Assembly: GCA_902781305.1 (NCBI GenBank)
Contig: CACZIV010000007.1
Span: 95,293-159,292, forward strand
Direction of reading: 5' to 3'
Origin: Pseudoselenomonas ruminantium
GTDB taxonomy: Bacteria > Bacillota > Negativicutes > Selenomonadales > Selenomonadaceae
Length of the DNA stretch: 64,000 nt
Shown: positions 12,470 to 63,034 of the stretch, piece after piece
How positions within the stretch are numbered: position 1 is the first letter of the stretch
Layout of the letters: every line of letters starts with the position of its first letter
The notes under the pieces: model-generated
Told to the model about the DNA's origin: nothing
The model's database searches: none
The model's input: only the letters and a program-made list of their open reading frames with translations
Translations under genes and position numbers: made by a program

Positions 12470-12572
12470 ACATCATAGCGTAAAGGCGCCCGCGGGGCTG
12501 TTATTATGTTTTCTTCGCCATAGACAGGCTTGTCAAAAGCTGCGAAAACATAACAACAGCCTCGCGGGCTTA
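12470..12572 (+). repeat. Repeat family 1, copy 1
   Basis: Imperfect palindrome of about 100 bp bounded by ACATC at the left and GGGCTTA at the right. The arms starting GCCCGCGGGGCTGTTATTATG pair with the right arm ending CCTCGCGGGC with two mismatches in 26 bp. The centre GACAGGCTTGTC is shared by all complete copies. It directly follows the M23 gene. Confidence 0.9.
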
Positions 12573-12591
12573 GTTTGTTGCATTGGATTTT

Positions 12592-12695
12592 TCATCTTGG
12601 CAATAAGGCGCCCCAGGGGACTGGCAGTATTTTTCCTTCGCTTAGACAGGCTTGTCAAACGCTGCGGAAAAAAACAGCCAGTCCCCTGGGGCTTA
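12592..12695 (+). repeat. Repeat family 1, copy 2
   Basis: Same architecture as copy 1, 122 bp further on. Arms GCCCCAGGGGACTGGC and GCCAGTCCCCTGGGGC are exactly complementary to each other yet differ from the arms of copy 1; the centre GACAGGCTTGTC is identical. Confidence 0.9.
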
Positions 12696-12717
12696 CTTTA
12701 TGGACATAGACGGATTT

Positions 12718-12821
12718 ACATCGTTGTGATAGGGCGCCCAAGGGAGCTGGCAATATTTTTCCTTCGCTTAGACAGGCTTGTCAAACGCTGCGGAAAAATA
12801 CAGCCAGCTCCCTCGGGCTTA
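12718..12821 (+). repeat. Repeat family 1, copy 3
   Basis: Third tandem copy, 126 bp after copy 2. Arms CCCAAGGGAGCTGGC and GCCAGCTCCCTCGGG pair almost perfectly. The core TTCGCTTAGACAGGCTTGTC is identical to copy 2. After it, 12822-12880 holds nothing recognisable. Confidence 0.9.
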
Positions 12822-12885
12822 GTTCGTATTATAGAAGATTTTCCTTTAGGTGTTATAGGGGCTGTTCGTTTGGATAGGGGATTGC

Positions 12886-12915
12886 TTGTTTTGTAGTCCT
12901 TTGATGATGTATAAT
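12886..12915 (+). promoter_or_regulatory. Promoter of the NYN-domain gene
   Basis: TTGTTT (12886-12891), 18 bp, TATAAT (12910-12915), 55 bp before the ATG. Confidence 0.55.
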
Positions 12916-12969
12916 GAATATGTCTATAGAATATTAAGAAAAATTCTAACCTGAAATTGGGGCGGTTGT

Positions 12970-13968
12970 ATGTCGTTGAGTGGGGATTTAGTCGTATTTA
13001 TTGACGCGGAAAATGCTTCGCCTAAGTGGGGCGTGCCGCTTTATGTGTGGCTCTGCCAGAATTTTAAGGTGCGGGAATGTTATTGTGTGGGCAACCGGGC
13101 TAAAACGGGGACGGATTATTTGCGCTTGGAAGGGCCGAAGTTTCACATTGTAAATAGTATGGTGGGGAAGGATTCAGCAGATACCTGGCTGGTTATGCTG
13201 GGGACGCGGGAGCTTTGCTTGCGGCGTTCGGTGAAGAAGGTCGCGATACTTTCCAATGACCGGGATTTTGCGCCACTGGCGTATCTGGCCGCTGAACGCA
13301 AGAAGAAGCTGATTATCTATGCGGCGGCTGTAAGCGGGGTAGACGGGCTGAAGCAGGCAATTAAGCGGATTGAGCCGGGGGAATCTGCGGCGGTGGAAAC
13401 CATTGATTTGGATAAGCTCGTCGCTCAGCAGCTGGGCCGGCCGGTGGAGAGTTGGCAGGAGCGACTACTCACGGGTGCCAGAAACTTAATTAAGTTTCCC
13501 GGAAAACTTTGGCCGAGAAAAAACAAGACGGTTGCGCTGCCTTCCGCGAATGTTATGGAGCCTTATCTACTGACACCGGCAAAGGGAAAAGCGGTCAGCG
13601 GAGCTGTGAGCAAGAAGAAAAAAAAGAAGGGCCATCATAAGCAGGACCTTTCGGTGGCTTTCAGCCAGCCGGATGGCGCTAGTGAACGCTTATTCCGCAA
13701 CTTATCTCCGGAGCTGCACAATTATTTGGCCAAACGTCAAAGTCAGGTAAAGTTGATTTTAGCACCGGGGCTAAGTGGTGAGTTCGTCGAGGTTCCGTTT
13801 ATCGACGGTATGCGGGATGGCGTGTTTATGGCATTTCTCATCGCTTTTAAGGTCATCAAAAAAGGCAATCTGGATGATGATTTTTATCGTTCTTTGGGAC
13901 TGGTGCATCGACAGAATGCCGTTTATTATGACCGCGAAGGATTGGACTCTTTTGAGGCTGAGGAATAA
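12970..13968 (+). CDS. NYN (PIN-like) domain putative ribonuclease
   Basis: A 332-aa protein with an N-terminal NYN domain (about residues 5-140). The acidic residues of the PIN-like active site are in VVFIDAENAS, GKDSADTWL and ILSNDRDFAPL. A basic linker follows (around residues 190-230, including a run of six lysines), then a C-terminal domain of about 110 residues that I do not recognise. NYN proteins are predicted or shown metal-dependent RNases acting in RNA processing. It is a single gene between a tandem repeat array and a terminator, with its own promoter. RNase activity is inferred from the family; the substrate is unknown. Confidence 0.85.
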   Translation: MSLSGDLVVFIDAENASPKWGVPLYVWLCQNFKVRECYCVGNRAKTGTDYLRLEGPKFHIVNSMVGKDSADTWLVMLGTRELCLRRSVKKVAILSNDRDFAPLAYLAAERKKKLIIYAAAVSGVDGLKQAIKRIEPGESAAVETIDLDKLVAQQLGRPVESWQERLLTGARNLIKFPGKLWPRKNKTVALPSANVMEPYLLTPAKGKAVSGAVSKKKKKKGHHKQDLSVAFSQPDGASERLFRNLSPELHNYLAKRQSQVKLILAPGLSGEFVEVPFIDGMRDGVFMAFLIAFKVIKKGNLDDDFYRSLGLVHRQNAVYYDREGLDSFEAEE

Positions 13969-14068
13969 GTATTATGTATACTTGAGGAACAGGCGCGAGC
14001 ATGCGGAAGCGCATTGTATTCCTGTATACCGTAAAAAAATACATAACATAACAAAAGCATTATAATAG

Positions 14069-14107
14069 AAAAAGCTCTATGCATTTACTGGCATAGGGCT
14101 TTTTTAT
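14069..14107 (+). terminator. Terminator after the NYN gene
   Basis: A 14-bp stem AAAAAGCTCTATGC / GCATAGGGCTTTTT (14069-14082 with 14091-14104) with a T-run tail. The remaining 14108-14260 is AT-rich and contains repeats of AAAATACAT but no gene. Confidence 0.85.
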
Positions 14108-14260
14108 TGCCTTTTTAAGTATAACTTATTTGTCACAGTGTAAATGGGGAAAATTATAAAAATACATTTTATTGCATAAAAATACATAAATATAAGGCAT
14201 AAATGCGCTTTTTACAGGGGTTATGGTAATTATAAATGCATATTTCTGACTTTTATCTTA

Positions 14261-14289
14261 TTGACACAGGTTTACAAAGTTCTTATAAT
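14261..14289 (+). promoter_or_regulatory. Consensus promoter of the glutamate synthase operon
   Basis: TTGACA (14261-14266), 17 bp, TATAAT (14284-14289): a perfect sigma-70 promoter. AAAATACAT occurs at about 14036, 14159, 14179 and 14307, on both sides of it, and is a candidate regulator-binding motif. Confidence 0.85.
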
Positions 14290-14370
14290 GTAAAATATGT
14301 TGTAATAAAAATACATCGAGTAAGGACAGATATGTAATATTTTGTATACATTCGCAAAGGAGCGACAGTT

Positions 14371-15477
14371 ATGTGCAGAATTGGTTCGATAAAAAGCAAG
14401 GTGCCTATTCAGCCCTCCAAGGCCCTTCATTTGATGCTGCCACAGCAGGAAGGCCATGATAATTCGGGCTTTGCCATGGTCATGCAGGACCTCTATGGCA
14501 TTTTCTCCAATTACAAGGATAGGCCCCTGCTTTCATTGGCTTGCACGCAGCGTGGTGCACAGTTGGTTGAGGACTATATGGATGCGCATAACTTTGTGCC
14601 GCTGGCTGAGTGGATTCCGGTTCCGGATAAGCGTCCGGGACTCGATATCAAGGCAATGCCCTACTATATCTTCCGCAATTATGACTATCCGGAAGAAGCT
14701 GGTCATATGAGTAAAGAGGAGAAGGAAAATCTCCTGCTCGATACGCGGCTGGCTCTGCGCAAAATTCTCACGGAGAACAATGCCGGCTTTGTGTATTCTT
14801 TCTGGCCGGATGTGCTGACCTTGAAGGAAATCGGCGACCCGGCAGATATTGCTACTTATTTCCATCTTTGGGATGACAATGGCTGTCTCGTGGCTAAATC
14901 CATCGTGGCGCAGTGCCGTCAGAATACGAACTATGATATTGTGCGCTATGCAGCGCATCCGTTCTTCCTGCAGGGCTATACGCTCTGCGCTAACGGCGAA
15001 AATACCTTCTATACGAAGAACAAGGAATTTCAGTCTTCCCTGCACCGTGGCTATATCGGCTTTGAATCCGATTCCCAGTGCTTCCTGAATACCCTGCACT
15101 ATGTGCACCATGAGCTCAAATGGCCGCTGACTTATTACAAGCATGTCATTACGCCGCTGCCCTTTGAAGAATGCGAGCAGCGTGAGGATAAGGATGTGCT
15201 GGTGGCCATTCGCCAGTCTTTGGCCAACTTGGAAATCAACGGGCCGAATACGGTTATCGGCGTGCTGCCGGACTGCCGCATGATTACCTGCTGTGATTCC
15301 AAGAAGCTGCGCCCGGTAGTGGTGGGCCGTGATGAAAACATGGTGGCGATTTCTTCGGAGGTCTGTGGCATCAATGAAATCATGCCGAACCGTGACCAGT
15401 CGCAGGATATTTATCCCAATGAACGTGAGATTGTCGTGATTGACAATGACCTGGAGGTACAGAGATGGAAGCAGTAA
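14371..15477 (+). CDS. Glutamate synthase, glutamine amidotransferase subunit
   Basis: A 368-aa class-II glutamine amidotransferase (Ntn fold). After removal of Met1 the catalytic Cys2 of MCRIGS becomes the N-terminal nucleophile that hydrolyses glutamine. This corresponds to the N-terminal domain of large GltB, here a separate polypeptide, as in the archaeal-type glutamate synthases. Its last 13 bp overlap the next gene, and it opens a three-gene operon that together provides amidotransferase, FMN/Fe-S synthase, GXGXG and NAD(P)H-oxidising modules. The ribosome site AAAGGAG is well placed. A perfect consensus promoter lies 82 bp upstream. Confidence 0.93.
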   Translation: MCRIGSIKSKVPIQPSKALHLMLPQQEGHDNSGFAMVMQDLYGIFSNYKDRPLLSLACTQRGAQLVEDYMDAHNFVPLAEWIPVPDKRPGLDIKAMPYYIFRNYDYPEEAGHMSKEEKENLLLDTRLALRKILTENNAGFVYSFWPDVLTLKEIGDPADIATYFHLWDDNGCLVAKSIVAQCRQNTNYDIVRYAAHPFFLQGYTLCANGENTFYTKNKEFQSSLHRGYIGFESDSQCFLNTLHYVHHELKWPLTYYKHVITPLPFEECEQREDKDVLVAIRQSLANLEINGPNTVIGVLPDCRMITCCDSKKLRPVVVGRDENMVAISSEVCGINEIMPNRDQSQDIYPNEREIVVIDNDLEVQRWKQ

Positions 15478-17096
15478 AAACACAGGATATCGGCGTCAAT
15501 GACCTGCCGTGGAAAATCGAATATCACGCAGAACGCTGTACTATGTGCGGCAGCTGCGTGGCCGGCTGTTCCTTCAAGGCCATCAAGGTAGAGGTGCAGA
15601 AGCAGTCTCTCACTGTTTCGGAAGGCAGCCAGCCGGAACCGAAACATACGCATATCGCAAGACCCATCATCAAGCAGGTGGCCAGTCTCACGGATTTCTG
15701 CCGCGGCTGTGGCATGTGTGAAAAGATTTGCCCAAATAATGCTATCCGTCCGGTGCGCAATGCAGATACCCGCAAGACCCTGCTCTCGAAGGATAACGGC
15801 CCCATCAAGCGGGGCGGCCGTACCAACCTCAACGCTCAGCGCACGCTGGACAGCATTGTGGTGGGCCGTATCTCCCAGATGACTGACCCGTCTTTGGACG
15901 CTGCACGTCATACCTTTGACATTCGCGCTCCTTTTGGCCGGGTACTGCCCGCTAAAGACCTGCCCTTTGAAATCAAGGACGGCAAGCTGGTGCAGAAAGC
16001 GAAGACTCCACCCGTGGATTGGATTTATCCGCTGATTTTCTCCGATATGTCTATCGGCGCATTGTCTACCCGCGCATGGGAGGCCGTGGCGTTGGCTGTC
16101 GGCTATCTCAATGAGAAATGCGGTCTGCCGGTGCGCATGAGCTCTGGTGAAGGCGGTATGCCGGTTAAACTTTTGGAATCGGATTATCTCAAATACTTCA
16201 TTATCCAGATTGCTTCCGGTCATTTCGGCTGGAACCGTATCATCAAGGCGATGCCGCATATGGTCACGGACCCGGCGGGTATCCTGATTAAAATCGGGCA
16301 GGGGGCAAAACCTGGTGATGGCGGCCTTTTGCCCAGTGCGAAAGTTGCTGAACATGTACAAGCTATCCGTGGCGTACCGAAGGCAACCTTGGCTTCGCCG
16401 CCGAACCATCAGGGCTTGTACTCCATTGAAGAATCGGTACAGAAAATGCACCTGTCCATGAATGCGGCGTTTGGTTTCCGTGTGCCGGTTGGCATCAAGT
16501 GTGCGGCTTCGGCAACATCCGTATCGGTATACAACAACCTGCTGCGTGACCCCTATAAGATTTGCGGCGGTTTCTTTATTGATGGCATTCAGGGCGGTAC
16601 TGGTGCAGCCAATGAAGTTTCTCTCGACCATACGGGTCATCCGGTGGTATCGAAGATTCGTGACTGCTATTTGGCAGCTGTCAAACAGGGCCTGCAGGGG
16701 CAGATTCCCCTCTACGGCGGCGGCGGTATCGGCATGACCGGCAATGCGGCAGCTGATGCGTTTAAGCTCATGTGTCTTGGTGCCAACGGTGTATTCGTCG
16801 GTAAGGTACTCATTCAGCTTCTGGGCTGTGTCGGCAACGAGCAGGGCCGTTGCAACTCCTGTAATACAGGCAAATGCCCCATGGGCATCTGCACGCAGGA
16901 CCCGCGCCTCGTGAAGCGTCTGGACATCGACAAGGGCGCTCAGAAGATTGTGGACTATGTACTGGCCTTCGATTCCGAGCTCAAAAAGCTTATGGCGCCT
17001 ATCGGCAACAGTTCGCTGCCTATCGGCCGCAGCGATGCATTGGTATCCACGGACAAGGCCGTGGCCGATCAGCTCGGCATTCAGTATGTATGTTAA
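15465..17096 (+). CDS. Glutamate synthase, FMN/iron-sulphur synthase subunit
   Basis: A 543-aa protein with two N-terminal 4Fe-4S motifs (CTMCGSCVAGC and CRGCGMCEKICP, residues about 25-90) followed by the FMN-binding glutamate synthase barrel (about 130-530). Typical segments include MSSGEGGMPVK, SPPNHQGLYSIE, DGIQGGTGAANE, and the C-N-x-G cluster cysteines of CNSCNTGKCPMGIC. It reduces 2-iminoglutarate, formed from 2-oxoglutarate and ammonia, to glutamate. The extra ferredoxin domain at the N-terminus is typical of archaeal-type GltB. Translation is coupled to the amidotransferase gene (overlap 13 bp), and the third subunit follows after 15 bp. Confidence 0.93.
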   Translation: MEAVKTQDIGVNDLPWKIEYHAERCTMCGSCVAGCSFKAIKVEVQKQSLTVSEGSQPEPKHTHIARPIIKQVASLTDFCRGCGMCEKICPNNAIRPVRNADTRKTLLSKDNGPIKRGGRTNLNAQRTLDSIVVGRISQMTDPSLDAARHTFDIRAPFGRVLPAKDLPFEIKDGKLVQKAKTPPVDWIYPLIFSDMSIGALSTRAWEAVALAVGYLNEKCGLPVRMSSGEGGMPVKLLESDYLKYFIIQIASGHFGWNRIIKAMPHMVTDPAGILIKIGQGAKPGDGGLLPSAKVAEHVQAIRGVPKATLASPPNHQGLYSIEESVQKMHLSMNAAFGFRVPVGIKCAASATSVSVYNNLLRDPYKICGGFFIDGIQGGTGAANEVSLDHTGHPVVSKIRDCYLAAVKQGLQGQIPLYGGGGIGMTGNAAADAFKLMCLGANGVFVGKVLIQLLGCVGNEQGRCNSCNTGKCPMGICTQDPRLVKRLDIDKGAQKIVDYVLAFDSELKKLMAPIGNSSLPIGRSDALVSTDKAVADQLGIQYVC

Positions 17097-17111
17097 TAGG
17101 GGGATAGCGTA

Positions 17112-19454
17112 ATGTTCAAGATTAATACCATGAAGGGACATGACCGTATGTCCACCCAGGACCTGCTGCTGGCTATTGAAGAGGCCGTACGGCAGGGCGA
17201 AACGGAATTTGAAGTGGCGGCTTCCGGCCAGCACGATATTGGCGGCCCGCTGTGGCATCCGGAAGGCAAGACGCTGCATTTCCATATTACCAATGCCGGT
17301 CAGCGTGCAGGCTCCATGTGTCTGCCGGGCACGGAAATCGTGGTGGAGGGGGCAACCTCTGCTGATGTTGGCTGGCTTAACGCCGGCGGTATCATCACCG
17401 TCAAGGGCGATGCCGGTGATACGGCCGGCCATTGCTCCTCCGGCGGTAAAATCTTTATCGGCGGCCGCAGTGGTACCCGTACCGGCTCACTCATGAAGCA
17501 TGACCCGCTCTACGAGGAACCAGAACTCTGGATTCTCAAGAACACAGGTTCCTTCTCCTTTGAATTTATGGGCGGCGGCCGTGCCGTGGTCTGCGGCTAT
17601 GACAGTGCAGAATTTTCCTCTGTACTCGGTGAACGCGCCTGTGTCGGCATGGTCGGCGGTGTCGTCTATGTTCGCGGCAATGTCGATGATTTCCCGGCGG
17701 ATATCAAATGCCTGCCCTTAGATGATGAGGATATTGCCTTCCTGCAGGGCGGTATGGACGACTTCCTGAGCCATATCGAACGCAGTGAGCTGAAAGGCGA
17801 ACTCACCAACTGGCAGGAATGGCAGAAGCTCACGCCGCTGACCTTTGCAGAAAAGGCAGCCAAGGGCAACAACAAGCCGTCCATGCAGGCTTTCCGCCTG
17901 AATGAATGGGTTAAGGGCGGTATCTTCTCCGATGTTGCCCATGATGATTTTGCGGTACATAACACGCTGTCGACAGGGCTTTACCGTCTGCGTGTACCGA
18001 GCTGGGATAATGCCAAATTTGCGGCACCCTGCGAATTCAACTGCCCGACTGGGATTCCGACCCAGCGCCGTTTTGATCTGATTCGTCAGGGCAAACTCGA
18101 TGAAGCCTTCCAGCTGGAACTTGAGTATACGCCGTTCCCCGGCTCGGTCTGTGGTTCCGTATGTCCGAATCCCTGTATGGATGGCTGTACCCGCGGCGGT
18201 ATTGATGAGCCGATTCAGATTGGCGCCTTGGGCTATCGCTCGGCCTTCCTGCCGGTGGCAAAGCCCTCCGTACAGACGGGCAAGAAAATCGCCGTTATCG
18301 GCGGCGGTGTAGCAGGCTTGTCTGCCGCTTGGCAGCTGGCGCGCAAAGGTCATAGCGTAACGGTCTATGATGAAGCGGAGCATATCGGCGGTAAGCTGGA
18401 ACAGGTTATCCCGCGCGGCCGTCTGTCCCATGAACTATTGGAAGCCGAACTCAAACGCATTGAAAGCGTGGGCGTAAAATTCGTTTCCAATTATAAAGTC
18501 GATAAAGAAAAATTTGCCCAGCTGCGCGGTGAACACGATGCTGTCGTGGTGGCAACGGGCGGCACCAAATCCCGCTTCTTCCCGTGGGAAGGGGCAGAAC
18601 GGCTGACCATGGGCCTTGAATACCTCAAGGCTATTAACCGTGGCGAGCATCCGCAGACGGGCAAGCATGTTGTCGTTATCGGTGCCGGTAACTCCGGTAT
18701 GGATACCTGCCGTGGCGCTTACGAAATGGGCGCAGAAACAGTAGTAGCGGTGGACGTACAGAAACCGGCAGCCTTTAAAGAGGAAATCGACTATGTGGAA
18801 GGTTTGGGCGGCAAGCTCGTCTGGCCGTTCTTCACCAATAAGATTACGGCTGAAGGCGTCTATGCCAATGACGGTACCTTCATTCCCGCCGACCAGGTTA
18901 TTGTGTCCATCGGTGAGGAGCCGGTACTCGACTTCCTGCCCGAAGACGAAGGCATTGAATTCTTCCGCAAGAGCTGGCTGGTGCCGAAGGCTGACCAGTC
19001 CATCGCAGAAGGGGTCTTTACGGCTGGCGATACCATCAAGCCGGGCAGACTTACGGACGCCATCGGCAGCGGCCGTAAAGCGGCTTACTACGTTGACCAG
19101 TATGTGATGGGACAGGAGGTTAAGCCTTTTCCGCAGAAACAGCAGATTCCGGCGGGGAGACTCTCAAAGGCTTACTTTGACAAATGCCATCACTGCCTGC
19201 TTGGCGACCCAGTGGACGACCATGCACGCTGCGTCAGCTGCGGTACCTGCCGTGACTGTAAAATGTGTCTGGAATCCTGCCCGGAAAAAGCCATCACCCG
19301 CATCGAAAAAGCGGATGGCAGCTGGGAATACGTATCCGACCCCGATAAGTGCATCGGCTGCGGTATCTGCGCCGGTGTCTGCCCCTGCGGTGTTTGGAGC
19401 ATTGAGGATAATCCGGAACCGATTAAGATGTATTCGACCGGTGCAAAAGCCTAA
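17112..19454 (+). CDS. Glutamate synthase, GXGXG domain fused to NAD(P)H-oxidising GltD-like subunit
   Basis: A 780-aa fusion. Residues 1-250 are the GXGXG beta-helix that in large GltB is the C-terminal domain (repeats such as GWLNAGGIITVKGDAGDTAG and FIGGRSG). Residues 300-370 are the GltD-type Fe-S domain (CEFNCPTGIP, CGSVCPNPCMDGC). Residues about 385-680 form the FAD/NAD(P)H Rossmann pair (IAVIGGGVAGLSAAWQLA; VVIGAGNSGMDTCRGA). The tail is a ferredoxin with CVSCGTCRDCKMCLESCP and CIGCGICAGVCPCG. It feeds electrons from NAD(P)H to the FMN subunit. The fusion joins parts of GltB and GltD in one chain. ATG 17112 follows AGGGGGAT; ATG 17148 is a weaker internal alternative. Confidence 0.92.
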   Translation: MFKINTMKGHDRMSTQDLLLAIEEAVRQGETEFEVAASGQHDIGGPLWHPEGKTLHFHITNAGQRAGSMCLPGTEIVVEGATSADVGWLNAGGIITVKGDAGDTAGHCSSGGKIFIGGRSGTRTGSLMKHDPLYEEPELWILKNTGSFSFEFMGGGRAVVCGYDSAEFSSVLGERACVGMVGGVVYVRGNVDDFPADIKCLPLDDEDIAFLQGGMDDFLSHIERSELKGELTNWQEWQKLTPLTFAEKAAKGNNKPSMQAFRLNEWVKGGIFSDVAHDDFAVHNTLSTGLYRLRVPSWDNAKFAAPCEFNCPTGIPTQRRFDLIRQGKLDEAFQLELEYTPFPGSVCGSVCPNPCMDGCTRGGIDEPIQIGALGYRSAFLPVAKPSVQTGKKIAVIGGGVAGLSAAWQLARKGHSVTVYDEAEHIGGKLEQVIPRGRLSHELLEAELKRIESVGVKFVSNYKVDKEKFAQLRGEHDAVVVATGGTKSRFFPWEGAERLTMGLEYLKAINRGEHPQTGKHVVVIGAGNSGMDTCRGAYEMGAETVVAVDVQKPAAFKEEIDYVEGLGGKLVWPFFTNKITAEGVYANDGTFIPADQVIVSIGEEPVLDFLPEDEGIEFFRKSWLVPKADQSIAEGVFTAGDTIKPGRLTDAIGSGRKAAYYVDQYVMGQEVKPFPQKQQIPAGRLSKAYFDKCHHCLLGDPVDDHARCVSCGTCRDCKMCLESCPEKAITRIEKADGSWEYVSDPDKCIGCGICAGVCPCGVWSIEDNPEPIKMYSTGAKA

Positions 19455-35165: not shown

Positions 35166-35213
35166 GTGCGTGGTTATTGGTTAGTCGATATCAATAGAAG
35201 GGAAGTATTTCAG

Positions 35214-36638
35214 ATGTTAGAAGTAAAAAATTATGAATTTTGGTTTGTAGCAGGCAGTCAGCATCTTTATGGCGAGGAACAGCTCAAGAATGTTGAGCGT
35301 GACACGCAGGACATTGTGGACAAATTAAATGCCAGCGGCAAGCTGCCGTATAAGGTGGTTTGCAAAGGTGTTATGACTACGGCTGATGGCATCACGCAGT
35401 TTATGAAGGATGTCAACTACCATGATGAAGTAGCTGGTGTGATTACCTGGATGCACACGTTCTCGCCGGCAAAGAACTGGATTCGCGGCACGAAACTGCT
35501 GCAGAAACCGCTGCTGCATTTGGCTACGCAGTATCTTAATGAAATTCCCTATGCAACGATTGACTTTGACTACATGAACCTCAACCAGAGTGCGCATGGC
35601 GACCGTGAATACGGCTATCTGAACTCCCGTCTGAACATCAACAACAAGATTGTCTATGGCTACTGGGGCGATGAAGAAGTACAGCAGGAAATCGCTTCCT
35701 GGCAGGATGTAGCTGTAGCTTATAACGAAAGCTTCCATATCCGTGTTTGCCGTTTCGGCGATACCATGCGTGATGTAGCCGTTACGGAAGGCGACAAGGT
35801 AGAAGCACAGATTCAGCTCGGCTGGACGGTTGACTATTGGCCGGTAGGTGACCTCGTGGATGAGGTAGATGCTGTTTCTGAAGCAGACATTGATGCAGAA
35901 TACAAGAAACTTTCCGAAATGTACACGCTCAATCCGCAGGACAACCCGCAGGATAAATTTGAGGCATCTGTACGCTATCAGCTGCGTGAATATCTGGGCA
36001 TCAAAAAATTCCTGGATGACAGAGGCTACAATGCGTTCTGCACGAACTTCCAGGATTTGAAGGGTCTTAAACAGCTGCCGGGCCTGGCTGCGCAGATGTT
36101 GATGCGTGATGGTTATGGCTTTGCCGCTGAAGGTGACTGGAAGCATGCTGCACTGACTCGCCTTTTGAAAATTATGGCACATAATGACCGTACGGTATTC
36201 ATGGAAGACTATACGCTCGACCTGCGCAAAGGCCATGAAGCTATTCTTGGTGCGCATATGCTCGAAGTTGACCCGACGATTGCCAGCGATAAACCGAAAG
36301 TGGAAGTGCATCCGCTTGATATCGGTGGCAAGGATGACCCCGCTCGTCTGGTATTCACCGGTGCTGACGGTGAAGCTGTCGATGTGACGGTGGCTGACTT
36401 CCGCGATGGCTTCCGTCTGATCAGCTATCCGGTTGACTGCCGCAAGGCTGAAGCGGAAACGCCGCATCTGCCGGTAGCAAAACAGCTCTGGACGCCGAAA
36501 TGCGGCCTGAAGAAGGGCTCCACGGAATGGATTAAAGCTGGTGGCGGCCATCATACGGTGCTGTCCTTCCGTTTGACGGAAGAACAGATTCATGATTTGG
36601 GCGTGATGCTGGGCATGAATTTGGTGGAGATTTGCTAA
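35214..36638 (+). CDS. araA: L-arabinose isomerase
   Basis: A 474-aa AraA that converts L-arabinose to L-ribulose in the cytoplasm with a divalent metal. Family segments are [14 protein letters not shown] at the start, [49 protein letters not shown] (metal-binding Glu), FMEDYTLDL (second Glu), and [11 protein letters not shown] near the end (metal-binding His). ATG 35214 lies 9 bp behind AAGGGAAG; the longer frame upstream lacks homology. It is the third gene of the unit with the porter and the kinase and is followed at once by a family 1 repeat. Confidence 0.97.
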
Positions 36639-36795: not shown

Positions 36796-36813
36796 GAGTA
36801 AAACAATAAAAAA

Positions 36814-36875
36814 TGTGTTCGAACAAAAATAAAAAATAAAAACATATTGACAAATACGGTGCAAAAGAGTATCGT
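36814..36875 (+). promoter_or_regulatory. Arabinose ABC operon promoter P1 with operator-like site
   Basis: TGTGTTCGAACAAA (36814-36827) matches the operator before the sugar porter. Twenty bp further comes TTGACA (36847-36852), 17 bp, TATCGT (36870-36875). Confidence 0.6.
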
Positions 36876-36928
36876 ATTAGATAGAAAAAGTTGTGGCTAA
36901 GCTGAGCAATAGCGTTATTTATGTTTAA

Positions 36929-36986
36929 TTGTCTGAGTTTTGCTAAAAGACTATATTGTGTGCATTTTAATATGTGCACGAGAACA
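36929..36986 (+). promoter_or_regulatory. Arabinose ABC operon promoter P2 with operator-like site
   Basis: TTGTCT (36929-36934), 17 bp, TATATT (36952-36957), then TGTGCACGAGAACA (36973-36986) just after the expected start point. The site shares TGTGnnCGAnnACA with the operator at 32046. Confidence 0.6.
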
Positions 36987-37097
36987 GATGGCGGATTGCA
37001 GCAGCAAACTGCGCAAGGCTAATCGCAAAGGGGGCAGGGCAAGAGATCGGTGCAGGAGTCACACGCGGAATCATGATGTAGCAAAGGAGACGATGAG

Positions 37098-38120
37098 ATG
37101 AAAAAGCTCATAGCATTATTACTAGCAAGCGTTATGATGATTGTAGCTGCCGGTTGCGGCGGTGGTGGTGAACAGGCTAAAGACAACGGCAAGTCCGGTG
37201 GCGGTGACAAGAAGATTACCATGGGCTTCTCCCAGATCGGAGCGGAATCCGAATGGAGAACGGCTAACACGGAATCCATCAAGAAGGCAGCAGAAGAAGC
37301 TGGCATCAACCTGCAGTTCTCGGATGCACAGCAGAAACAGGAAAATCAGATTAAGGCTATTCGTTCCTTTATCGCACAGGGCGTAGATATTATCGCTTTC
37401 GTGCCCATCGTAGAAACGGGCTGGGATACGGTACTCAAAGAAGCAAAAGATGCCAAAATCCCGGTTGTCGTTGTTGACCGCGATGTGAAACTCGCCGATG
37501 ACAGCCTCTATGTTGCCAAAATCGGTACCGACTCCGTAAAAGAAGGCAACAACGTATTCAAATGGATTGACGAATACATGGCTAAAGAAAAGAAGACCCC
37601 GCGTGATGGTGGCAGCCAGTACAACGTAGTTGTTCTCGAAGGTACGGTTGGTTCTTCCGTAGCTATCCGCCGTCAGGAAGGCTTCAAAGATGCTATGGCT
37701 AAATCCCCGAATGCTGGCAAATATAACATCCTCGCTTCCCAGACCGGTGAATTCACCCGTCAGAAAGGCCAGGAAGTTATGGAATCTTTCCTGAAATCCT
37801 ATGGTCCGAAAATCGACATTCTTTTTGCTCATAACGATGATATGGCTCTCGGTGCTATTCAGGCAATCGAAAAAGCTGGCCTCAAACCCGGCAAAGACAT
37901 CACCATTATCTCCATTGATGGCGTAAAAGGTATGTTCCAGGCTATGATTGAAGGCAAAGCAAACTGCACGGTAGAATGCAACCCGCTGCAGGGCAAACTC
38001 CTGATGGAAACGGCTAAGAAGATTCTTGCCGGTGAAAAAGTTGACAAACTGGTTTATGTTGACGAAGGTGTCTTCCCTGCTGATGTAGCAGAAAAGACCC
38101 TGCCGGAACGCAAATACTAA
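37098..38120 (+). CDS. Sugar-binding lipoprotein of a YtfQ-type ABC transporter
   Basis: A 340-aa periplasmic-binding-protein-I type solute receptor. The N-terminus is a lipoprotein signal (hydrophobic core then AAGCGGGG, Cys at residue 20). The mature part strongly resembles E. coli YtfQ: MGFSQIGAESEWRTANTESI, DAQQKQENQIKAIRSFIAQG, VVVLEGTVGSSVAIRRQEGF, FAHNDDMALGAIQAIEKAGLKPG and ISIDG. YtfQ binds galactofuranose and, less well, arabinose-like furanoses. Here the context is L-arabinose catabolism, so L-arabinofuranose or L-arabinose is the inferred ligand. It heads a four-gene operon and is separated from the ATPase gene by a hairpin, consistent with higher expression of the receptor. Confidence 0.9.
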   Translation: MKKLIALLLASVMMIVAAGCGGGGEQAKDNGKSGGGDKKITMGFSQIGAESEWRTANTESIKKAAEEAGINLQFSDAQQKQENQIKAIRSFIAQGVDIIAFVPIVETGWDTVLKEAKDAKIPVVVVDRDVKLADDSLYVAKIGTDSVKEGNNVFKWIDEYMAKEKKTPRDGGSQYNVVVLEGTVGSSVAIRRQEGFKDAMAKSPNAGKYNILASQTGEFTRQKGQEVMESFLKSYGPKIDILFAHNDDMALGAIQAIEKAGLKPGKDITIISIDGVKGMFQAMIEGKANCTVECNPLQGKLLMETAKKILAGEKVDKLVYVDEGVFPADVAEKTLPERKY

Positions 38121-38140
38121 GCTGAGATTCAAGTAAATGC

Positions 38141-38184
38141 AAGGCCGTGCCCGTACAGCGTATGTGTGCGGACACGGCTTTATT
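38141..38184 (+). terminator. Intercistronic hairpin behind the receptor gene
   Basis: A 17-bp stem with wobble pairs (38141-38157 with 38165-38181) and a weak T tail (TTTATTTAT). It is likely a leaky terminator or mRNA-stabilising end that raises receptor levels relative to the membrane parts. Confidence 0.6.
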
Positions 38185-38217
38185 TATACCTATATTAGCG
38201 CATAAGGAGTGACATCT

Positions 38218-39726
38218 ATGGCACAGGCACTACTGGAAATGCGGCATATCACCAAGGAATTCCCTGGTGTGCGGGCACTATCCAATGTGGACTTTACCTT
38301 GCATGCAGGCGAAATTCATTCCCTGATGGGTGAAAATGGCGCCGGCAAATCCACCTTGGTCAAGGTGCTGACCGGCGTATACCCCAGAGATGGTGGAACG
38401 GTGTTCTTAAATGGCAAGGCCATCAACCCGAAGACCCCGAAAGATGCACAGGATTGCGGCATTTCGACCGTTTATCAGGAAGTTAACCTCTGCTCGAATC
38501 TGACGGTGGCGGAAAACATTTTTATCGGCCGTGAACCGCGCAAATTTGGCATGATTGATTGGAAGACCATTAATCAGCGGGCGGCAGAGCTGCTGGCTAA
38601 GTTGGATGTACATATTGATGTAACCAAGACTTTGGACAACTATTCCGTGGCTTTGCAGCAGATGATTGCCATTGCCCGTGCCGTGGATGTGGATGCCAAG
38701 ATTCTGATTTTGGACGAGCCGACATCTTCCCTGAATGAAGAAGAAACTGCCCATCTGTTCAAGATTATGCGGCAGCTGCAAAAGCAGGGCTTAGGTATTA
38801 TCTTTATCTCTCATTTCCTCGACCAAATCTATGAAATCTGCGACCATATCACGGTATTGCGCAACGGCGAGCTGGTAGGCGCCTATGAAACGGCAAAACT
38901 GCCTCGGCTGGAACTCATCGCCAAGATGGTCGGCAAAGACCTCAATGAAGTCAAGGATATGGATAATTTTGCTGAAAAGAGCGTACCAAGCGACGAGGTA
39001 TTCTTAGAAGCCAAGGGTATTGGCGCTGTGGGCAAGCTCAACGAAGTGGATGTACAGATTCACAAGGGGGAGGTTATCGGCTTTGCCGGGCTCTTAGGCT
39101 CCGGGCGCACGGAAACCGCAGAACTCCTGTTCGGCATCAACGAAATCAATAAGGGCTCGCTCTCTATCAACGGCAAGAAGCTGCATTTGAAGAATCCCAT
39201 GAATGCCATGGAGCAGAAAATCGGGTTCTGTCCCGAAGACCGCAAGCTGTCCGGCATTATTGGCGATTTGTCGGTGCGGGAAAATATCATTCTGGCAATG
39301 CAGGCCAAAGACGGTATCCTGCGCCACATTCCCTATGAGGAGCAGGTCAAGATTGCCGATGACTGCATCAAGCTGCTGCGCATCAAGGTTTCGAGCCGGG
39401 AACAGCTCGTGAAGAACCTCTCTGGCGGCAATCAGCAGAAGGTCATTATCGCTCGTTGGCTGGCTACGCAGCCCGATTTACTCATCCTCGATGAGCCGAC
39501 CCGTGGTATTGATGTTGGTACCAAGACTGAGATTCAGAAGATGGCTATTTCGCTGGCCAAGAAGAAGGGCATGGCGGTGGTGTTCATTTCCTCGGAAATG
39601 GATGAAATGGTGCGTACCTGTACGAAACTCGTCGTTATGCGCGACAGGCGCAAGGTGGCAGAACTTACTGGTTCGGATATCAGTTCGGATGGCGTGATGA
39701 AGGCCATTGCAGGAGGTGCAGCCTGA
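38218..39726 (+). CDS. Sugar ABC transporter, duplicated ATPase (YtfR type)
   Basis: A 502-aa tandem ABC ATPase of the ribose/galactose class. First cassette: Walker A GENGAGKSTLVKVL, Q-loop VYQEVNLC, and Walker B ILILDEPTSSLNEEE; its signature motif is degenerate (NYSVALQQMIAIARA instead of LSGGQ), which is normal for this class. Second cassette: GLLGSGRTETAELLFG as a variant Walker A, LSGGNQQKVIIARW and LLILDEPTRGIDVG. ATG 38218 has AAGGAG 8 bp upstream. The stop codon overlaps the next start (ATGA). It energises import with the two permeases that follow. Confidence 0.95.
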   Translation: MAQALLEMRHITKEFPGVRALSNVDFTLHAGEIHSLMGENGAGKSTLVKVLTGVYPRDGGTVFLNGKAINPKTPKDAQDCGISTVYQEVNLCSNLTVAENIFIGREPRKFGMIDWKTINQRAAELLAKLDVHIDVTKTLDNYSVALQQMIAIARAVDVDAKILILDEPTSSLNEEETAHLFKIMRQLQKQGLGIIFISHFLDQIYEICDHITVLRNGELVGAYETAKLPRLELIAKMVGKDLNEVKDMDNFAEKSVPSDEVFLEAKGIGAVGKLNEVDVQIHKGEVIGFAGLLGSGRTETAELLFGINEINKGSLSINGKKLHLKNPMNAMEQKIGFCPEDRKLSGIIGDLSVRENIILAMQAKDGILRHIPYEEQVKIADDCIKLLRIKVSSREQLVKNLSGGNQQKVIIARWLATQPDLLILDEPTRGIDVGTKTEIQKMAISLAKKKGMAVVFISSEMDEMVRTCTKLVVMRDRRKVAELTGSDISSDGVMKAIAGGAA

Positions 39727-40799
39727 TGGAAATGCTGAAAAAATTTAGTGGCAGTTCCCTTTTCCTGCCCGTGGTGGCACTTACGGTACTGCTCATATTC
39801 AATACCTTGTTTGTCGATGGTTTTTTGACGATACAGATGACTGAGGATGGTCATTTATATGGTCGTCTGGTCGATATTTTGAACCGTTCCTGCTCGCTGA
39901 TCATTTTGGCACTGGGCATGACCTTCGTCATTGCCACCAGCGGCATTGATATTTCCGTTGGTGCGGTGGTAGCGATTTCCGCCGCTGTGGTCTGCACGCT
40001 GATTGGCGGCCGTGGCGACGGTGTAGCGGAAATGCCCATGACGGTCGCTATGCTGGCGGCTGTGGGTGTCGGTGTGCTCTGTGGTATGTGGAATGGCCTC
40101 CTGGTCGCCAAGTTCAAGATTCAGGCCGTTGTGGCAACGCTGATTCTGATGACGGCTGGCCGTGGTGTGGCGCAGCTGATGACGGAAGGGCAGATTATCA
40201 CGGTTTATTACAAACCCTTTGAGTATATTGCCGGCTTCCTGCCCAATATGCCCTTGCCGACCAATATCTTCATTGCCTTGGCGATGGTGCTGCTCGTAGC
40301 CGTTCTGATGAAGAAAACCAGTATTGGCCTGTTTGTGCAGTCCGTTGGCATTAATCCCACGGCGGCAAGATATGCGGGTATCAATGTGACCATGGTTATC
40401 TTCCTGGTATATGCTTTCTCCGGTCTTTGTGCCGGTGTATCTGGCCTGATTGAAAGCTCTTTGATTCGGGCAGCTGATGCCAACAATGCGGGCCTGAATA
40501 TGGAAATGGATGCTATTCTTGCGGTAGCTTTGGGCGGTACGCTGCTTTCCGGCGGCAAGTTCTATGTGGGCGGCTCCGTAATCGGTGCCATCACTATACA
40601 GACTTTGACCACCACTATGTACGCTTTGGGCGTTTCGGCTGACCAGCTGCCGGTGGTTAAGGCGGCTGCGGTTATCATCATTTGCCTGATTCAGTCCAAG
40701 AAGGCACAGGAAATGTTTGATAAGTGGAAGGCTTCCCGCCATTCCCAACAGAAAAACGATAACAAAGCAGTATTCGGAAAGGCGGTGAAGCAATTATGA
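39726..40799 (+). CDS. Sugar ABC transporter permease (YtfT type)
   Basis: A 357-aa integral membrane permease of the ribose/galactose family (BPD_transp_2), about ten hydrophobic segments. The segment LIILALGMTFVIATSGIDISVGAVVAIS is the family signature, and GGTLLSGGKFYVGGSVIGAI lies near the C-terminus. It pairs with the YjfF-like permease encoded next as a heterodimer, as in the galactofuranose system of E. coli. Translation is coupled to both neighbours by 4-bp overlaps. Confidence 0.92.
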   Translation: MEMLKKFSGSSLFLPVVALTVLLIFNTLFVDGFLTIQMTEDGHLYGRLVDILNRSCSLIILALGMTFVIATSGIDISVGAVVAISAAVVCTLIGGRGDGVAEMPMTVAMLAAVGVGVLCGMWNGLLVAKFKIQAVVATLILMTAGRGVAQLMTEGQIITVYYKPFEYIAGFLPNMPLPTNIFIALAMVLLVAVLMKKTSIGLFVQSVGINPTAARYAGINVTMVIFLVYAFSGLCAGVSGLIESSLIRAADANNAGLNMEMDAILAVALGGTLLSGGKFYVGGSVIGAITIQTLTTTMYALGVSADQLPVVKAAAVIIICLIQSKKAQEMFDKWKASRHSQQKNDNKAVFGKAVKQL

Positions 40800-41830
40800 G
40801 CAGCAAACTCAATCAGATGATTGCTTCCAAGTATTTCTCCTTTTTTGTAACTTTGGCCCTCTTTGTGATTCTCTATGGAGCTGGCATGGCCATTTACAAG
40901 GGCTTTATGCGGCCGCAGGTTTTTTTGAACCTCTTTATTGATAATGCGGCGCTGATTATCGTCACGATTGGTATTACCTTCACGTTGATTATTGCGGGCA
41001 TTGACCTTTCTGTTGGTGCAGTGCTGGCGCTGGTCTGCATGGTGCTGGCCTGGCTTTTGGCCAATACGGGGATTCCCCTTGGCCTGGCTGTGCTGTTGGT
41101 ACTCGTTATGGGCACGGTGTTTGGTGCGGTACAGGGCTATATCATCACGAAATTTGACTTGCAGCCCTTTATCATCACGCTGGCAGGCATGTTCTTCTGC
41201 CGCGGTCTCACGGCGGTTATCTCACAGGATACGATTCAGATTGTCAATCCCGATTGGGTAGCACTGGCCAGCTACCGCATTGATTTGGGCGTAGGTTTTG
41301 TGTCCATTGGTGCAGTAGTAGCACTCATCATGATTGCCATTGCGGCTCTGGTGTTGGGCTTTACGAAATTTGGCCGGGCCGTATTTGCCATCGGTGGCAG
41401 CGAATCTTCGGCAGCGCTTATGGGCCTGCCGGTATTCCGCACGAAGGTTATGGTCTATGCTATTTCCGGTTTCTGCGCCTCTATGGGAGGTCTTGCTTAC
41501 AGCCTGATTATGTTGACGGGCTATAACCTGCATGGTCTGGGCATGGAAATGGATGCCATTGCGTCCTCGGTTATCGGCGGTACGCTGTTGACCGGTGGCG
41601 TAGGGTTTATCCCCGGTGCCCTTATCGGTGTGCTGATTCAGGGCGTAATCCTGACCTTTATCAGCTTCCAGGGAACCCTGTCGGCCTGGTGGACGAAGAT
41701 TGTGGTCGGTGCATTGCTTTGCGTGTTCATCATCATGCAGGCCCTGATTACGGAACAGAAGAGCAAACTCTCGTCCAAGCGTTCCATGGAAACACCCAAG
41801 GAACCGCCGGCAGCTGCTGTCCAAAGCTGA
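40796..41830 (+). CDS. Sugar ABC transporter permease (YjfF type)
   Basis: A 344-aa permease, paralogous to the preceding one: LIIVTIGITFTLIIAGIDLSVGAVLAL is the same signature, and GGTLLTGGVGFIPGALIGVLI the C-terminal motif. Expected to form the heterodimeric channel with the YtfT-like protein. It begins in the stop codon of that gene (ATGA) and ends the operon; a strong terminator follows 21 bp later. The cytoplasmic tail is charged and Pro-rich (KRSMETPKEPPAAAVQS). Confidence 0.92.
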   Translation: MSSKLNQMIASKYFSFFVTLALFVILYGAGMAIYKGFMRPQVFLNLFIDNAALIIVTIGITFTLIIAGIDLSVGAVLALVCMVLAWLLANTGIPLGLAVLLVLVMGTVFGAVQGYIITKFDLQPFIITLAGMFFCRGLTAVISQDTIQIVNPDWVALASYRIDLGVGFVSIGAVVALIMIAIAALVLGFTKFGRAVFAIGGSESSAALMGLPVFRTKVMVYAISGFCASMGGLAYSLIMLTGYNLHGLGMEMDAIASSVIGGTLLTGGVGFIPGALIGVLIQGVILTFISFQGTLSAWWTKIVVGALLCVFIIMQALITEQKSKLSSKRSMETPKEPPAAAVQS

Positions 41831-56541: not shown

Positions 56542-56558
56542 AAAGCTGACAAGTGAAT

Positions 56559-56590: not shown

Positions 56591-56641
56591 ATATATAAAT
56601 ATATGATTATATATTAATATCAGAGAAAGGGAGCTTTGGTT

Positions 56642-58162: not shown

Positions 58163-58189
58163 TTCCCTGATTTGAGAGGAGCTATATTG

Positions 58190-61318: not shown

Positions 61319-61339
61319 ATAATCCCTTTACATCCCCTT

Positions 61340-61375
61340 ACTGAGGCTATGTTTATTCATAGTCTCAGTTTTTTC
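61340..61375 (+). terminator. Terminator of the porin-amylase unit
   Basis: The stem ACTGAGGCTATG / CATAGTCTCAGT (61340-61351 with 61358-61369, one G-T pair) is followed by TTTTTT. Confidence 0.9.
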
Positions 61376-61458
61376 TATATTTTGCAGGAAATTTCTGTAT
61401 TCGGGGCGTATAACTACAATGAAAAGTGTCACTTTGCACAGGGAAGGGAGTGTCTGTT

Positions 61459-62184
61459 ATGGCGAAATATATCTTTCTGGTACTGCTGGTGGTTGCCGTA
61501 GCAGGAGCCGGAGGCTATTACGCTGCAATTCAATATGACCAGACGCGGGCTATCGTTCAAGCAGAACAGGATAAGAAGGATGCGGCTAAGCAAGAGGAAC
61601 TGAAGGCTAAAGAAGAGAAGGAAGCTAAGGCTAGGGCAAAAGCCCGGCGCAAGCAGGAACTTATAGACAAGCGCACAGGCAAGGCTGAGGAGCCGGACCA
61701 GGTTATTCGTGGCCTGACTGCGGATATGCTGGTGACGAAAGAGATGGATGGTTCCACCTATTATCGGTATGAAGACCCCATAGAGGATGGTATCTTTTTG
61801 CAGCCTTATCTTGTTCGGGATGCTGGCGGGAGAGCAGTTATTCATATTATTTTGCGGCATCGCGGCGGGCGGCCGATGAATTTCCAGGGGGTAGGGCTGC
61901 AGGTCAGTGAAGAGGAGATTTATTTTGTACGAACCAGTGGTAATGTGGTGACGTCGAATACTAACACTGGCATTATGGAATGGTGTGATCAGGTAGCCGA
62001 TTCGGAAACCTTGAAAGGCATGCAGGGCGTCGCAGATCAGCTGGCAGGAAAAATTCTCATGATTGGCGTGCCGGGAGGTTCTAATGATGACCGCATGTTG
62101 TCCGCGACAGAGGCTTCGCGTATAAAAAATATGCTGGATTTGTGTGATATCTTTAACGGTAAGAAAAAGACCAAGGATAGTTAA
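61459..62184 (+). CDS. Membrane-anchored protein of unknown function
   Basis: A 241-aa protein. One N-terminal hydrophobic segment (about residues 4-24, IFLVLLVVAVAGAGGYYAA) is followed by a very charged Lys/Glu/Ala helix (about 38-80), probably a coiled coil, and a globular C-terminal domain of about 150 residues (PYLVRDAGGRAVIHIILRHRGGRPM). I recognise no family. ATG 61459 follows AAGGGAG. The next gene, 14 bp downstream, has the same architecture, so the pair may form an envelope complex. Confidence 0.75.
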   Translation: MAKYIFLVLLVVAVAGAGGYYAAIQYDQTRAIVQAEQDKKDAAKQEELKAKEEKEAKARAKARRKQELIDKRTGKAEEPDQVIRGLTADMLVTKEMDGSTYYRYEDPIEDGIFLQPYLVRDAGGRAVIHIILRHRGGRPMNFQGVGLQVSEEEIYFVRTSGNVVTSNTNTGIMEWCDQVADSETLKGMQGVADQLAGKILMIGVPGGSNDDRMLSATEASRIKNMLDLCDIFNGKKKTKDS

Positions 62185-62198
62185 GTGGGGGTGTTGGT

Positions 62199-62924
62199 AT
62201 GGAAACAGGATTATTTTCCCCTATGATAGCGGATACGGTTCTGATTTTGGTAGGGGTTATCAGTTTAGTGGCCTTAGTGGGCATATCCTATAATTATTCG
62301 CTTATGTTCAATGCTCGGGGAAAAATCGCCAAAATAGAAGCTTTGGAGCAAGAGTTGAAGACTTTGCAACGCGAGTTAAAAGAACTAAAGTCACAAATGG
62401 TCAAATATCAGTTTAAGGAAGCGGCACCCATTGACAAAGGGGTGCCGAAATCCGCTGTCAATACAGCTGCGGCTGGTGCAGCGGAAAGCCCTTTGAAGCA
62501 AGAGGTTTGGCAAGCGTTTGTGGACGATTATAATAATCTGGCACGCAGCATGGATGTGCCTAAGGCAGATAAGGCCTGTGAAAGTTTTGTGCGCAATAAT
62601 CGCTTGCATTTGCTTATTTGTGTGGAGCCATCCGATACGGAGAATGGTGGAGGTACTCCGCTGTATGCTCCTGTGGATGAAGTGGAACTCAGTAATTTCT
62701 GGGCATGGCAGGTACCGGGCAAAGCGGATGTATTTGTCGTGGTGCCGAATCCTTTGGTGGAGTATAATGAGGAATTACATAACCACAAGGGGATGAAGGA
62801 GACTTTTGCCTCGAATTATGAAAAGGGAAATTTTAAGCAGCTGCAGGTTAAGCTTCCGGCACAGTTTACGCAGCGGCTAGGGGCATGGAAGATTGTGCAG
62901 CCGGGAGTTATCAAAGTGCAATAG
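62199..62924 (+). CDS. Membrane-anchored coiled-coil protein of unknown function
   Basis: A 241-aa protein with a transmembrane segment at about residues 11-33 (TVLILVGVISLVALVGISYNY), a coiled coil at about 43-72 (KIEALEQELKTLQRELKELK), a linker, and a globular domain at about 95-241 with no recognised motif (VWQAFVDDYNNLARSM; FWAWQVPGKADVFVVVPNP). ATG 62199 follows GGGGGTG. It is in a tight pair with the 61459 gene and is followed 8 bp later by a family 1 repeat. Function unknown. Confidence 0.75.
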   Translation: METGLFSPMIADTVLILVGVISLVALVGISYNYSLMFNARGKIAKIEALEQELKTLQRELKELKSQMVKYQFKEAAPIDKGVPKSAVNTAAAGAAESPLKQEVWQAFVDDYNNLARSMDVPKADKACESFVRNNRLHLLICVEPSDTENGGGTPLYAPVDEVELSNFWAWQVPGKADVFVVVPNPLVEYNEELHNHKGMKETFASNYEKGNFKQLQVKLPAQFTQRLGAWKIVQPGVIKVQ

Positions 62925-62932
62925 TTTGTGTA

Positions 62933-63034
62933 ACATCGAAACATAAAGGCGCCCGCGGAGCCGGTAATGTTTTCCTTCGCCATAGACAGGCTTGTCAAAA
63001 GCTGTGGAAAACATCACCAGCTGCCGCGGGCTTA
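62933..63034 (+). repeat. Repeat family 1, copy 6
   Basis: Starts ACATC and ends GGGCTTA like the others, directly after the 62199 gene. Arms GCCCGCGGAGCCGGTAATG and CATCACCAGCTGCCGCGGGC pair imperfectly; the centre GACAGGCTTGTC is conserved. Confidence 0.9.

What the first reader, a model, noticed from the sequence alone, without database searches (positions are those of the whole stretch)
12470..63034. Family of about 100-bp palindromic elements whose arms covary between copies
Five complete copies (12470, 12592, 12718, 36649, 62933) and a truncated one (36772) share the border ACATC-N8 to N9-AAGGCGCCC, the centre GACAGGCTTGTC and the end GGGCTTA. The 25-bp arms differ strongly between copies but within each copy left and right arms stay complementary. 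Compensatory change argues that the folded structure is selected or regenerated, not simply inherited. All arrays begin 8-15 bp after a + strand stop codon (M23 gene, araA, 62199 gene), in one orientation. Possible roles: REP/BIME-like mRNA 3' ends, a non-autonomous mobile element moved by an unseen transposase, or a small RNA. I know no named family with this centre.
Basis: partly seen in the sequence, partly recalled or inferred. Interest (0 to 1): 0.78.

Follow-up and report, generated by a model that had tools for sequence, protein, structure and literature searches.

The report
Self-matching hairpin repeats after genes
Rumen Selenomonas bacteria carry up to about 150 copies of a hairpin-forming DNA repeat just after genes; the two sides of each hairpin match each other although they differ between copies, which seems to happen partly because one side is re-copied from the other.

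Summary
In detail: five complete copies and one left-end remnant. The own genome has 136 centre matches. Of the genomes searched, the family is in 12 of 22 Selenomonas, all one S. ruminantium-like clade, and 0 of 19 from other genera; no Rfam family fits. Covariation far exceeds shuffles: 108 double-change cells against 23. In 46 of 47 co-directional gaps the first copy is in gene sense; in 14 of 14 mixed arrays the inverted copy is last; only 2 of 64 gaps are divergent. Outer arms are 95% Watson-Crick without G-U excess (54 G-U, 60 A-C). Same-site orthologues carry more matched double changes, transversions included, than independent mutation predicts. Strand-specific A-C mismatches concentrate beside the apical module. 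I read it as a new REP/BIME-like 3'-end hairpin family whose arms are kept matched largely by DNA-level arm-to-arm copying plus recombination between copies; a role at transcript ends is inferred. No tested enzyme family tracks it. A second, smaller family of the same design exists in the clade.

The parts
12466..12583 (+). complete hairpin element 1, first of three after the M23 peptidase gene
   Evidence: 113.5 bits
12588..12706 (+). complete hairpin element 2
   Evidence: 114.4 bits
12714..12832 (+). complete hairpin element 3
   Evidence: 117.8 bits
36645..36759 (+). complete hairpin element 4, after araA
   Evidence: 108.8 bits
36770..36798 (+). left-end remnant of a further copy; a longer copy is present at this place in G006 and G016
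   Evidence: read by eye
62929..63045 (+). complete hairpin element 5, after the gene 62199-62924
   Evidence: 101.7 bits; G011 has a copy with other arms at the same place
11493..12455 (+). M23 peptidase gene upstream of elements 1-3
   Evidence: Pfam PF01551
12457..14013 (+). segment absent from G010 and G011 (about 46 bp there): elements 1-3 plus a NYN-domain gene at 12970-13968
   Evidence: PF01936, 24.9 bits against a cut-off of 24.2
35166..36638 (+). araA, L-arabinose isomerase, upstream of element 4
62199..62924 (+). gene of unknown family upstream of element 5
   Evidence: no Pfam match

Best explanation
A clade-specific, REP/BIME-like family of intergenic hairpins standing at the 3' ends of genes. 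Each copy has an apical module (two internal loops around a GC/GC step, under a small tip hairpin), a short clamp next to it (TTTTCC/GGAAAA) with strand-specific mismatches, and long outer arms that vary freely between copies but are almost perfectly complementary within a copy. Step 1, shown by comparison of sites: copies turn over by tandem gain and loss and by recombination inside the shared centre, which leaves half-and-half hybrids. Step 2, inferred from the change spectrum: the outer arms are re-matched at DNA level when a growing strand folds back on the apical hairpin and copies the other arm (hairpin-primed template switching, as proposed for RNA stems in PMC8794818), so that a change in one arm becomes a matched change. 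Step 3, inferred: the folded copy acts at transcript 3' ends, as a barrier, end protector or part of a terminator; the fixed order, sense copies first and one inverted copy last, suggests a working arrangement and not random insertion.
For: Covariation far over shuffles. Outer arms 2816 of 2959 cells Watson-Crick, G-U 54 and A-C 60, while terminator-like stems of the same DNA show G-U 78 and A-C 43 (Fisher p 0.009). In 91 same-site pairs, 13 matched double changes against about 1.2 expected from the single-sided rate; as distinct changes in the outer arms, 9 matched, 5 of them transversion pairs, against 76 single-sided. One matched transversion in G020 occurs once in G020 and not in G000, G003, G006 or G016. 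Mismatches concentrate beside the module (inner positions A-C 317, G-U 50), as expected if the inner stem primes and the outer arm is copied. Site turnover and hybrids. Order and position. The tip also changes as pairs in distant copies.
Against: Single-sided changes still outnumber matched ones about 8 to 1 in close pairs, and among distinct recent outer-arm changes G-U is 32 and A-C 21, a slight lean towards wobble. The same-site pairs share genomes, and three of the nine matched changes are adjacent and probably one replacement. At araA one pair shows an ordinary A-T, G-T, G-C path. If both strands are transcribed, G-U/A-C parity says little. Conversion from unsampled copies is not excluded (G020 is 81% complete). 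No expression data. Copies scoring under 10 (17 of 316) were left out of the pairing counts, which raises the paired percentage.
Confidence: 0.45

Rival explanations
1. Structured RNA under ordinary selection: 3'-UTR or terminator hairpins whose conserved double internal loop binds a factor; arms and tip co-vary by compensatory mutation alone.
For: Loops conserved while arms and tip vary as pairs; strict position and order after stop codons; the module sits on intrinsic terminators at the htpX site in 6 of 12 carriers; a second family has the same layout.
Against: No G-U excess in the outer arms (54:60), unlike terminator stems (78:43); 5 of 9 distinct matched changes are transversion pairs. 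The better-folding RNA strand is antisense to the element in 202 of 237 copies, that is antisense to the upstream gene for the leading copies.
Confidence: 0.25
2. Non-autonomous mobile element moved as single-stranded DNA by a transposase, as REP/REPIN by TnpA-REP; strand-specific mismatches are the recognition feature.
For: High copy number in one clade and low in its sisters; conserved strand-specific mismatches, a feature that TnpA-REP needs in E. coli REP (PMC8266576, passages).
Against: Y1_Tnp absent from 4 of 12 carriers and present in 5 of 10 non-carriers; no clean empty site in 181 comparisons; fixed order in arrays; no match in plasmids and no hairpin in the viral hits.
Confidence: 0.14
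3. No function: terminator-derived palindromes that spread by duplication and recombination and are kept perfect by template switching alone.
For: 10 of 22 congeners lack them; recent single-sided arm changes are nearly unbiased.
Against: Order rule, 46 of 47 and 14 of 14, and near absence from divergent gaps; conserved loops and conserved inner mismatches.
Confidence: 0.1
4. Integron-like recombination sites (attC analogues) used to insert genes.
For: Folded sites with variable arms placed after stop codons; an array plus a NYN gene form an inserted segment at M23.
Against: No integron integrase above the cut-off in 22 of 22 genomes; here the apex is conserved and the arms are not bounded by the integron boxes as I recall them (boxes not tested).
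Confidence: 0.03

Closest known systems
REP / BIME repeats with RAYT (TnpA-REP); GTAG- and CGTC-tagged repeats (PMC3733652 and PMC8266576, passages read)
   Same: Many dispersed intergenic hairpins, clustered copies, closeness to gene ends, strand-specific stem irregularities, subfamilies with alternative complementary stem residues.
   Different: About 115 bp against 20-40 bp; no conserved GTAG or CGTC tag seen; copies arranged as sense copies plus one terminal inverted copy; no linked Y1 transposase; arms vary far more than the apex.
Stem-loop-containing sequence families of bacteria (PMC2267715, passages read)
   Same: Repeated sequence families that fold as stem-loops, some terminator-like.
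   Different: The passages I saw do not describe covarying arms or this family; 'compensatory' and 'covaria' have 0 occurrences in that text.
RNA hairpins maintained by template-switch mutation (PMC8794818, abstract and Discussion read)
   Same: Matched changes in stems, loop kept, priming at an existing hairpin.
   Different: There within RNA genes; here a dispersed bacterial repeat with much longer arms.
Intrinsic terminators
   Same: At htpX and at G010 L206:17168 the module tops a terminator with A and T tracts.
   Different: The usual copies end GGGCTTA without a T run, and arrays do not generally replace terminators.
Integron attC sites (recalled)
   Same: Folded single-strand structure with variable arms, found after stop codons.
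   Different: No integron integrase over the cut-off.

Membership tests
REP/BIME with RAYT | many intergenic hairpin copies per genome | tested here: met
   136 centre matches in G000; 0 of 163 copies inside predicted genes
REP/BIME with RAYT | unit of 20-40 bp | tested here: not met
   about 115 bp, hairpin about 90 bp
REP/BIME with RAYT | conserved GTAG or CGTC at one end | tested here: not met
   no such tag in the end consensus (approximate because some gapped rows were included)
REP/BIME with RAYT | companion Y1 transposase in carriers | tested here: not met
   Y1_Tnp in 8 of 12 carriers and 5 of 10 non-carriers
REP/BIME with RAYT | alternating orientations in clusters | tested here: not met
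   sense copies then at most one inverted copy in 46 of 47 co-directional gaps
Rfam RNA families | match at the curated score | tested here: not met
   no gathering-score match at the elements; sub-threshold matches only (12400-12900)
Integron attC | integron integrase in the genome | tested here: not met
   0 of 22 genomes over the cut-off; weaker matches occur in all 22 and in all 14 control genomes
Integron attC | R and L boxes | not tested
   not scanned
Intrinsic terminator | GC-rich hairpin followed by a T run | tested here: inconclusive
   present at htpX in six carriers, usually absent after GGGCTTA; arrays and terminators co-occur at rates near background
Template-switch-maintained hairpin | excess of matched double changes, not limited to G-U routes | tested here: met
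   13 against about 1.2 expected in 91 pairs; 5 of 9 distinct outer-arm ones are transversion pairs
Template-switch-maintained hairpin | single-event origin of the matched change | not testable with these tools
   needs mutation accumulation or dense population sequences

The most novel reading that the evidence does not exclude
Self-templating palindromes: a dispersed repeat whose conserved apical module works as a built-in fold-back primer, so that each copy keeps re-copying one arm onto the other. It would be a natural bacterial case of concerted evolution inside a single hairpin, at up to about 150 sites per genome, with a second related family of the same design, and read at gene 3' ends by an unknown clade-specific factor through a fixed order of sense and inverted hairpins.
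Probability: 0.25. Interest if true: 0.82.

Novelty: new variant of a known kind. Interest (0 to 1): 0.6.

Why it matters
Paired changes in a stem are usually read as proof that an RNA structure is selected. Here is a multi-copy set in which paired changes come without G-U excess and with transversions between close strains, so 'selected' and 're-copied' could be told apart within one species. It also shows an ordered 3'-end hairpin array, and a second family of the same design, in a rumen lineage for which I found no description of either in the papers searched.

Tried and rejected
Rfam, at gathering scores over the window and loosely over 12400-12900: nothing credible. Enzyme partners: Y1 transposase (8 of 12 carriers, 5 of 10 others), reverse transcriptase (5 of 12, 4 of 10), integron integrase (0 of 22 over the cut-off): none tracks the family. 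Other families were not searched, so a carrier-specific gene is not excluded. Plasmids: no match to one element. Viral contigs (2 hits) and two odd rows of the genome scan (L089 Rhodoferax, L119 Rickettsiales): centre look-alikes without the hairpin, judged chance.

'Arrays replace terminators': suggested by the M23 and araA sites, not supported in bulk. Co-directional gaps with arrays have a terminator in 24 of 55 cases against 104 of 274 without; convergent 7 of 29 against 18 of 40. The stretch searched was longer for arrays, so the comparison is rough. 'The module was inserted into plain terminators': suggested by G005 against G000 at htpX, unproven because what follows the site differs in G005.

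Empty sites: 17 of 181 comparisons had no centre in the target. Looked at directly or through the orthologous locus, they were htpX terminators, an orthologous element with a changed tip, rearranged spacers, a half-element remnant, or chance centres inside genes.

Errors of mine: scripts also read gapped alignment rows. The pairing and folding counts were redone cleanly; the end consensus was not redone and is approximate; counts are not used. Model counts are capped at 90 scored candidates per genome and, like those, count some hairpins on both strands; one search gives whole counts for the centre only. Gene calls are my own simple codon-usage calls, and the loci used were fetched because they hold the centre.
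Full report
What is there. The window holds five complete hairpins and one left-end remnant. They fold with z -5.2 to -7.7. Thirty-seven copies of the own genome, the window's five included, give 17 of 24 pairs with double changes and 108 double-change cells against 23.4 in shuffles, 0 of 500 as high; sliding the partner by 1 to 3 columns drops paired cells from 96% to 31-51%. The covariation is real, with two cautions: the copies were collected through the centre, so its invariance is built in, and the copies are related.

Where it occurs. The own genome has 136 centres at up to 2 mismatches, against 1 for the reversed control, and 148 model matches, some of them the same hairpin on both strands. 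The model finds the family in 12 of 22 Selenomonas genomes (own included) and 0 of 19 genomes of other genera. The 12 are those whose M23 protein is 86-100% identical to the window's; the 10 without are at 64-74%. Matching coordinates and contig lengths identify several carriers as S. ruminantium: ATCC 12561 is G003, RUG14411 G016, RUG13114 G006, UBA3715 G020, UBA6979 G007, SIG242 G011. Centre copies at up to 1 mismatch: G003 151, G000 126, G020 113, G006 107, G016 98, G007 50 (68% complete), G011 18, G010 17, G004 4, and 0 in G005, G013, G017 and the 10 non-carriers; the model copies I looked at in those three carriers have a changed tip or centre. I call G000, G003, G006, G007, G016 and G020 clade A and the other six carriers clade B. 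One clade carries the family and clade A expanded it.

Anatomy. From the outside in: loosely conserved ends; AAGRCGCCC and GGGCTTA; variable outer arms; a TTTTCC/GGAAAA clamp; a 3x3 internal loop; GC/GC; a second internal loop; the tip. Of 316 unique centre windows, 17 score under 10 for arm pairing and were set aside; 237 of the rest are non-redundant and 236 could be placed. Outer positions 6-18: Watson-Crick 2816 of 2959 cells with letters, G-U 54, A-C 60, other 29. Inner positions 0-5: Watson-Crick 1026, A-C 317, G-U 50, other 15. Left and right arms of one copy pair with median score 36; arms of different copies with 12, 95th percentile 32. The inner A-C mismatches become G-T on the other strand, and that strand folds better as RNA in 202 of 237 copies. 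Tips vary as pairs in distant copies: GACA/TGTC, GGCA/TGCC, GACG/CGTC, GACGC/GCGTC (types only).

Context. In the window and 78 loci of relatives, 0 of 163 copies lie inside my predicted genes; of 98 arrays with a known upstream gene 81 follow a same-strand gene, and 48 of these 81 begin 15-35 bp after the stop. Where both neighbours are known, 47 co-directional, 15 convergent and 2 divergent gaps hold copies, although 43 of 193 gaps of 120 bp or more in these sequences are divergent. Co-directional patterns in gene orientation: > 11, >> 13, >>> 8, >< 4, >>< 7, >>>< 3, << 1. The inverted copy is last in 14 of 14 mixed arrays. By arms, 86 of 88 sense copies are classic; of 16 inverted copies 9 are purine-armed, 4 other and 3 classic. 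Orthologous gaps of several strains are in these counts, so they are not all independent.

How copies change. At M23 the six clade-A genomes have two or three copies and the six clade-B genomes none; clade A shows deletions and a hybrid in G003, clade B a terminator-like hairpin, by eye. Segment 12457-14013, array plus NYN gene, is 1557 bp in G000 where G010 and G011 have about 46 bp. At araA the clade-A genomes have one or two copies, partly with other arms (G007 is partly masked), clade B none; the segment 36805-41794 lies elsewhere in G010. At the 62929 site G000 and G011 carry copies with different arms and tips. At L126 and its G010 orthologue two pairs changed on both sides. Hybrids with unmatched arms exist.

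Copied or selected? In 91 same-site pairs (mean flank divergence 5.7%), paired positions show 67 changes to G-U, 59 to A-C, 36 to other mismatches, 10 single-sided between non-standard pairs, 5 other double and 13 matched double changes; from the single-sided rate I expect about 1.2 matched ones by chance. Counted as distinct changes, the outer arms have 76 single-sided (G-U 32, A-C 21, other 18, between non-standard pairs 5) and 9 matched, 5 of them transversion pairs; the inner part 47 and 2. Three of the nine are adjacent and probably one replacement. The matched T-A to G-C change at araA in G020 occurs once there and in none of G000, G003, G006 and G016. Terminator-like stems in the same DNA (250 hairpins) show G-U 78 and A-C 43; against the arms' 54 and 60 Fisher p is 0.009. 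With the gradient of mismatches away from the module this favours copying of one arm onto the other, primed at the apical hairpin, as discussed in PMC8794818 (abstract and Discussion read). Against it: single-sided changes dominate, their G-U/A-C ratio leans slightly to wobble, araA shows one ordinary A-T, G-T, G-C path, and if both strands are transcribed the parity loses force. Selection must still keep the module.

A wider class. At htpX the module sits on terminators in G000, G006, G016, G020, G010 and G011, while G003, G004, G005, G007, G013 and G017 have plain ones, by eye; the stem base of G005 resembles that of G000. A second family shares the layout with another apex (GATTTACRCGC ... 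GCGYGTACTAGC). Its 14-base motif at up to 1 mismatch hits 10 of 22 genomes, all among the 12 carriers, 2 to 8 hits each; the reversed control hits 18 of 22 genomes, up to 12 times in G012, so the hairpin context carries the claim and not the motif. Of 30 places printed, one (L303) looks like a chance hit and several are neighbouring halves. The first-family model finds two second-family copies weakly, 32.4 and 28.9 bits.

Literature. Searches for Selenomonas ruminantium with palindromic, quasipalindrome and template switch, REP with compensatory, hairpin or palindromic repeats with Selenomonas, stem-loop families and double-hairpin elements listed nothing that describes this family; the library holds open-licence papers only. 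REP features are from passages of PMC3733652 and PMC8266576.

Verdict. Confirmed and widened. It is REP/BIME-like but fails the REP tests of size, tag, transposase and orientation, so I do not file it as REP. It is a new variant of a known kind, with DNA-level arm copying as the most likely main reason for the covariation and a 3'-end role as the likely but untested function.

Noticed in passing
L207 (G010, near 15195-17975 of the reverse strand), L225, L126, L290-L319: Second family of hairpins with variable matched arms and another conserved apex, same layout, in 10 of the 12 carriers and low copy.
   Followed up: partly
window 63046-63150 and beyond: Start of another repeat (AAATTGCAGTTTGT ...) directly after element 5; look-alikes follow terminators in G011, G010 and G001. 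Possibly a MITE with inverted ends.
   Followed up: no
window 4119-4195, - strand: ZMP/ZTP riboswitch, 50.8 bits.
   Followed up: no
window 12970-13968: NYN-domain gene that sits with the array in the segment missing from G010 and G011.
   Followed up: partly
window 36805-41794: Segment after the araA array maps to another chromosomal place in G010, so a rearrangement end coincides with an array.
   Followed up: no
G014 contigs C1, C3, C4, C8, C12: Six equal-scoring reverse-transcriptase frames of 470 aa, probably copies of one element.
   Followed up: no
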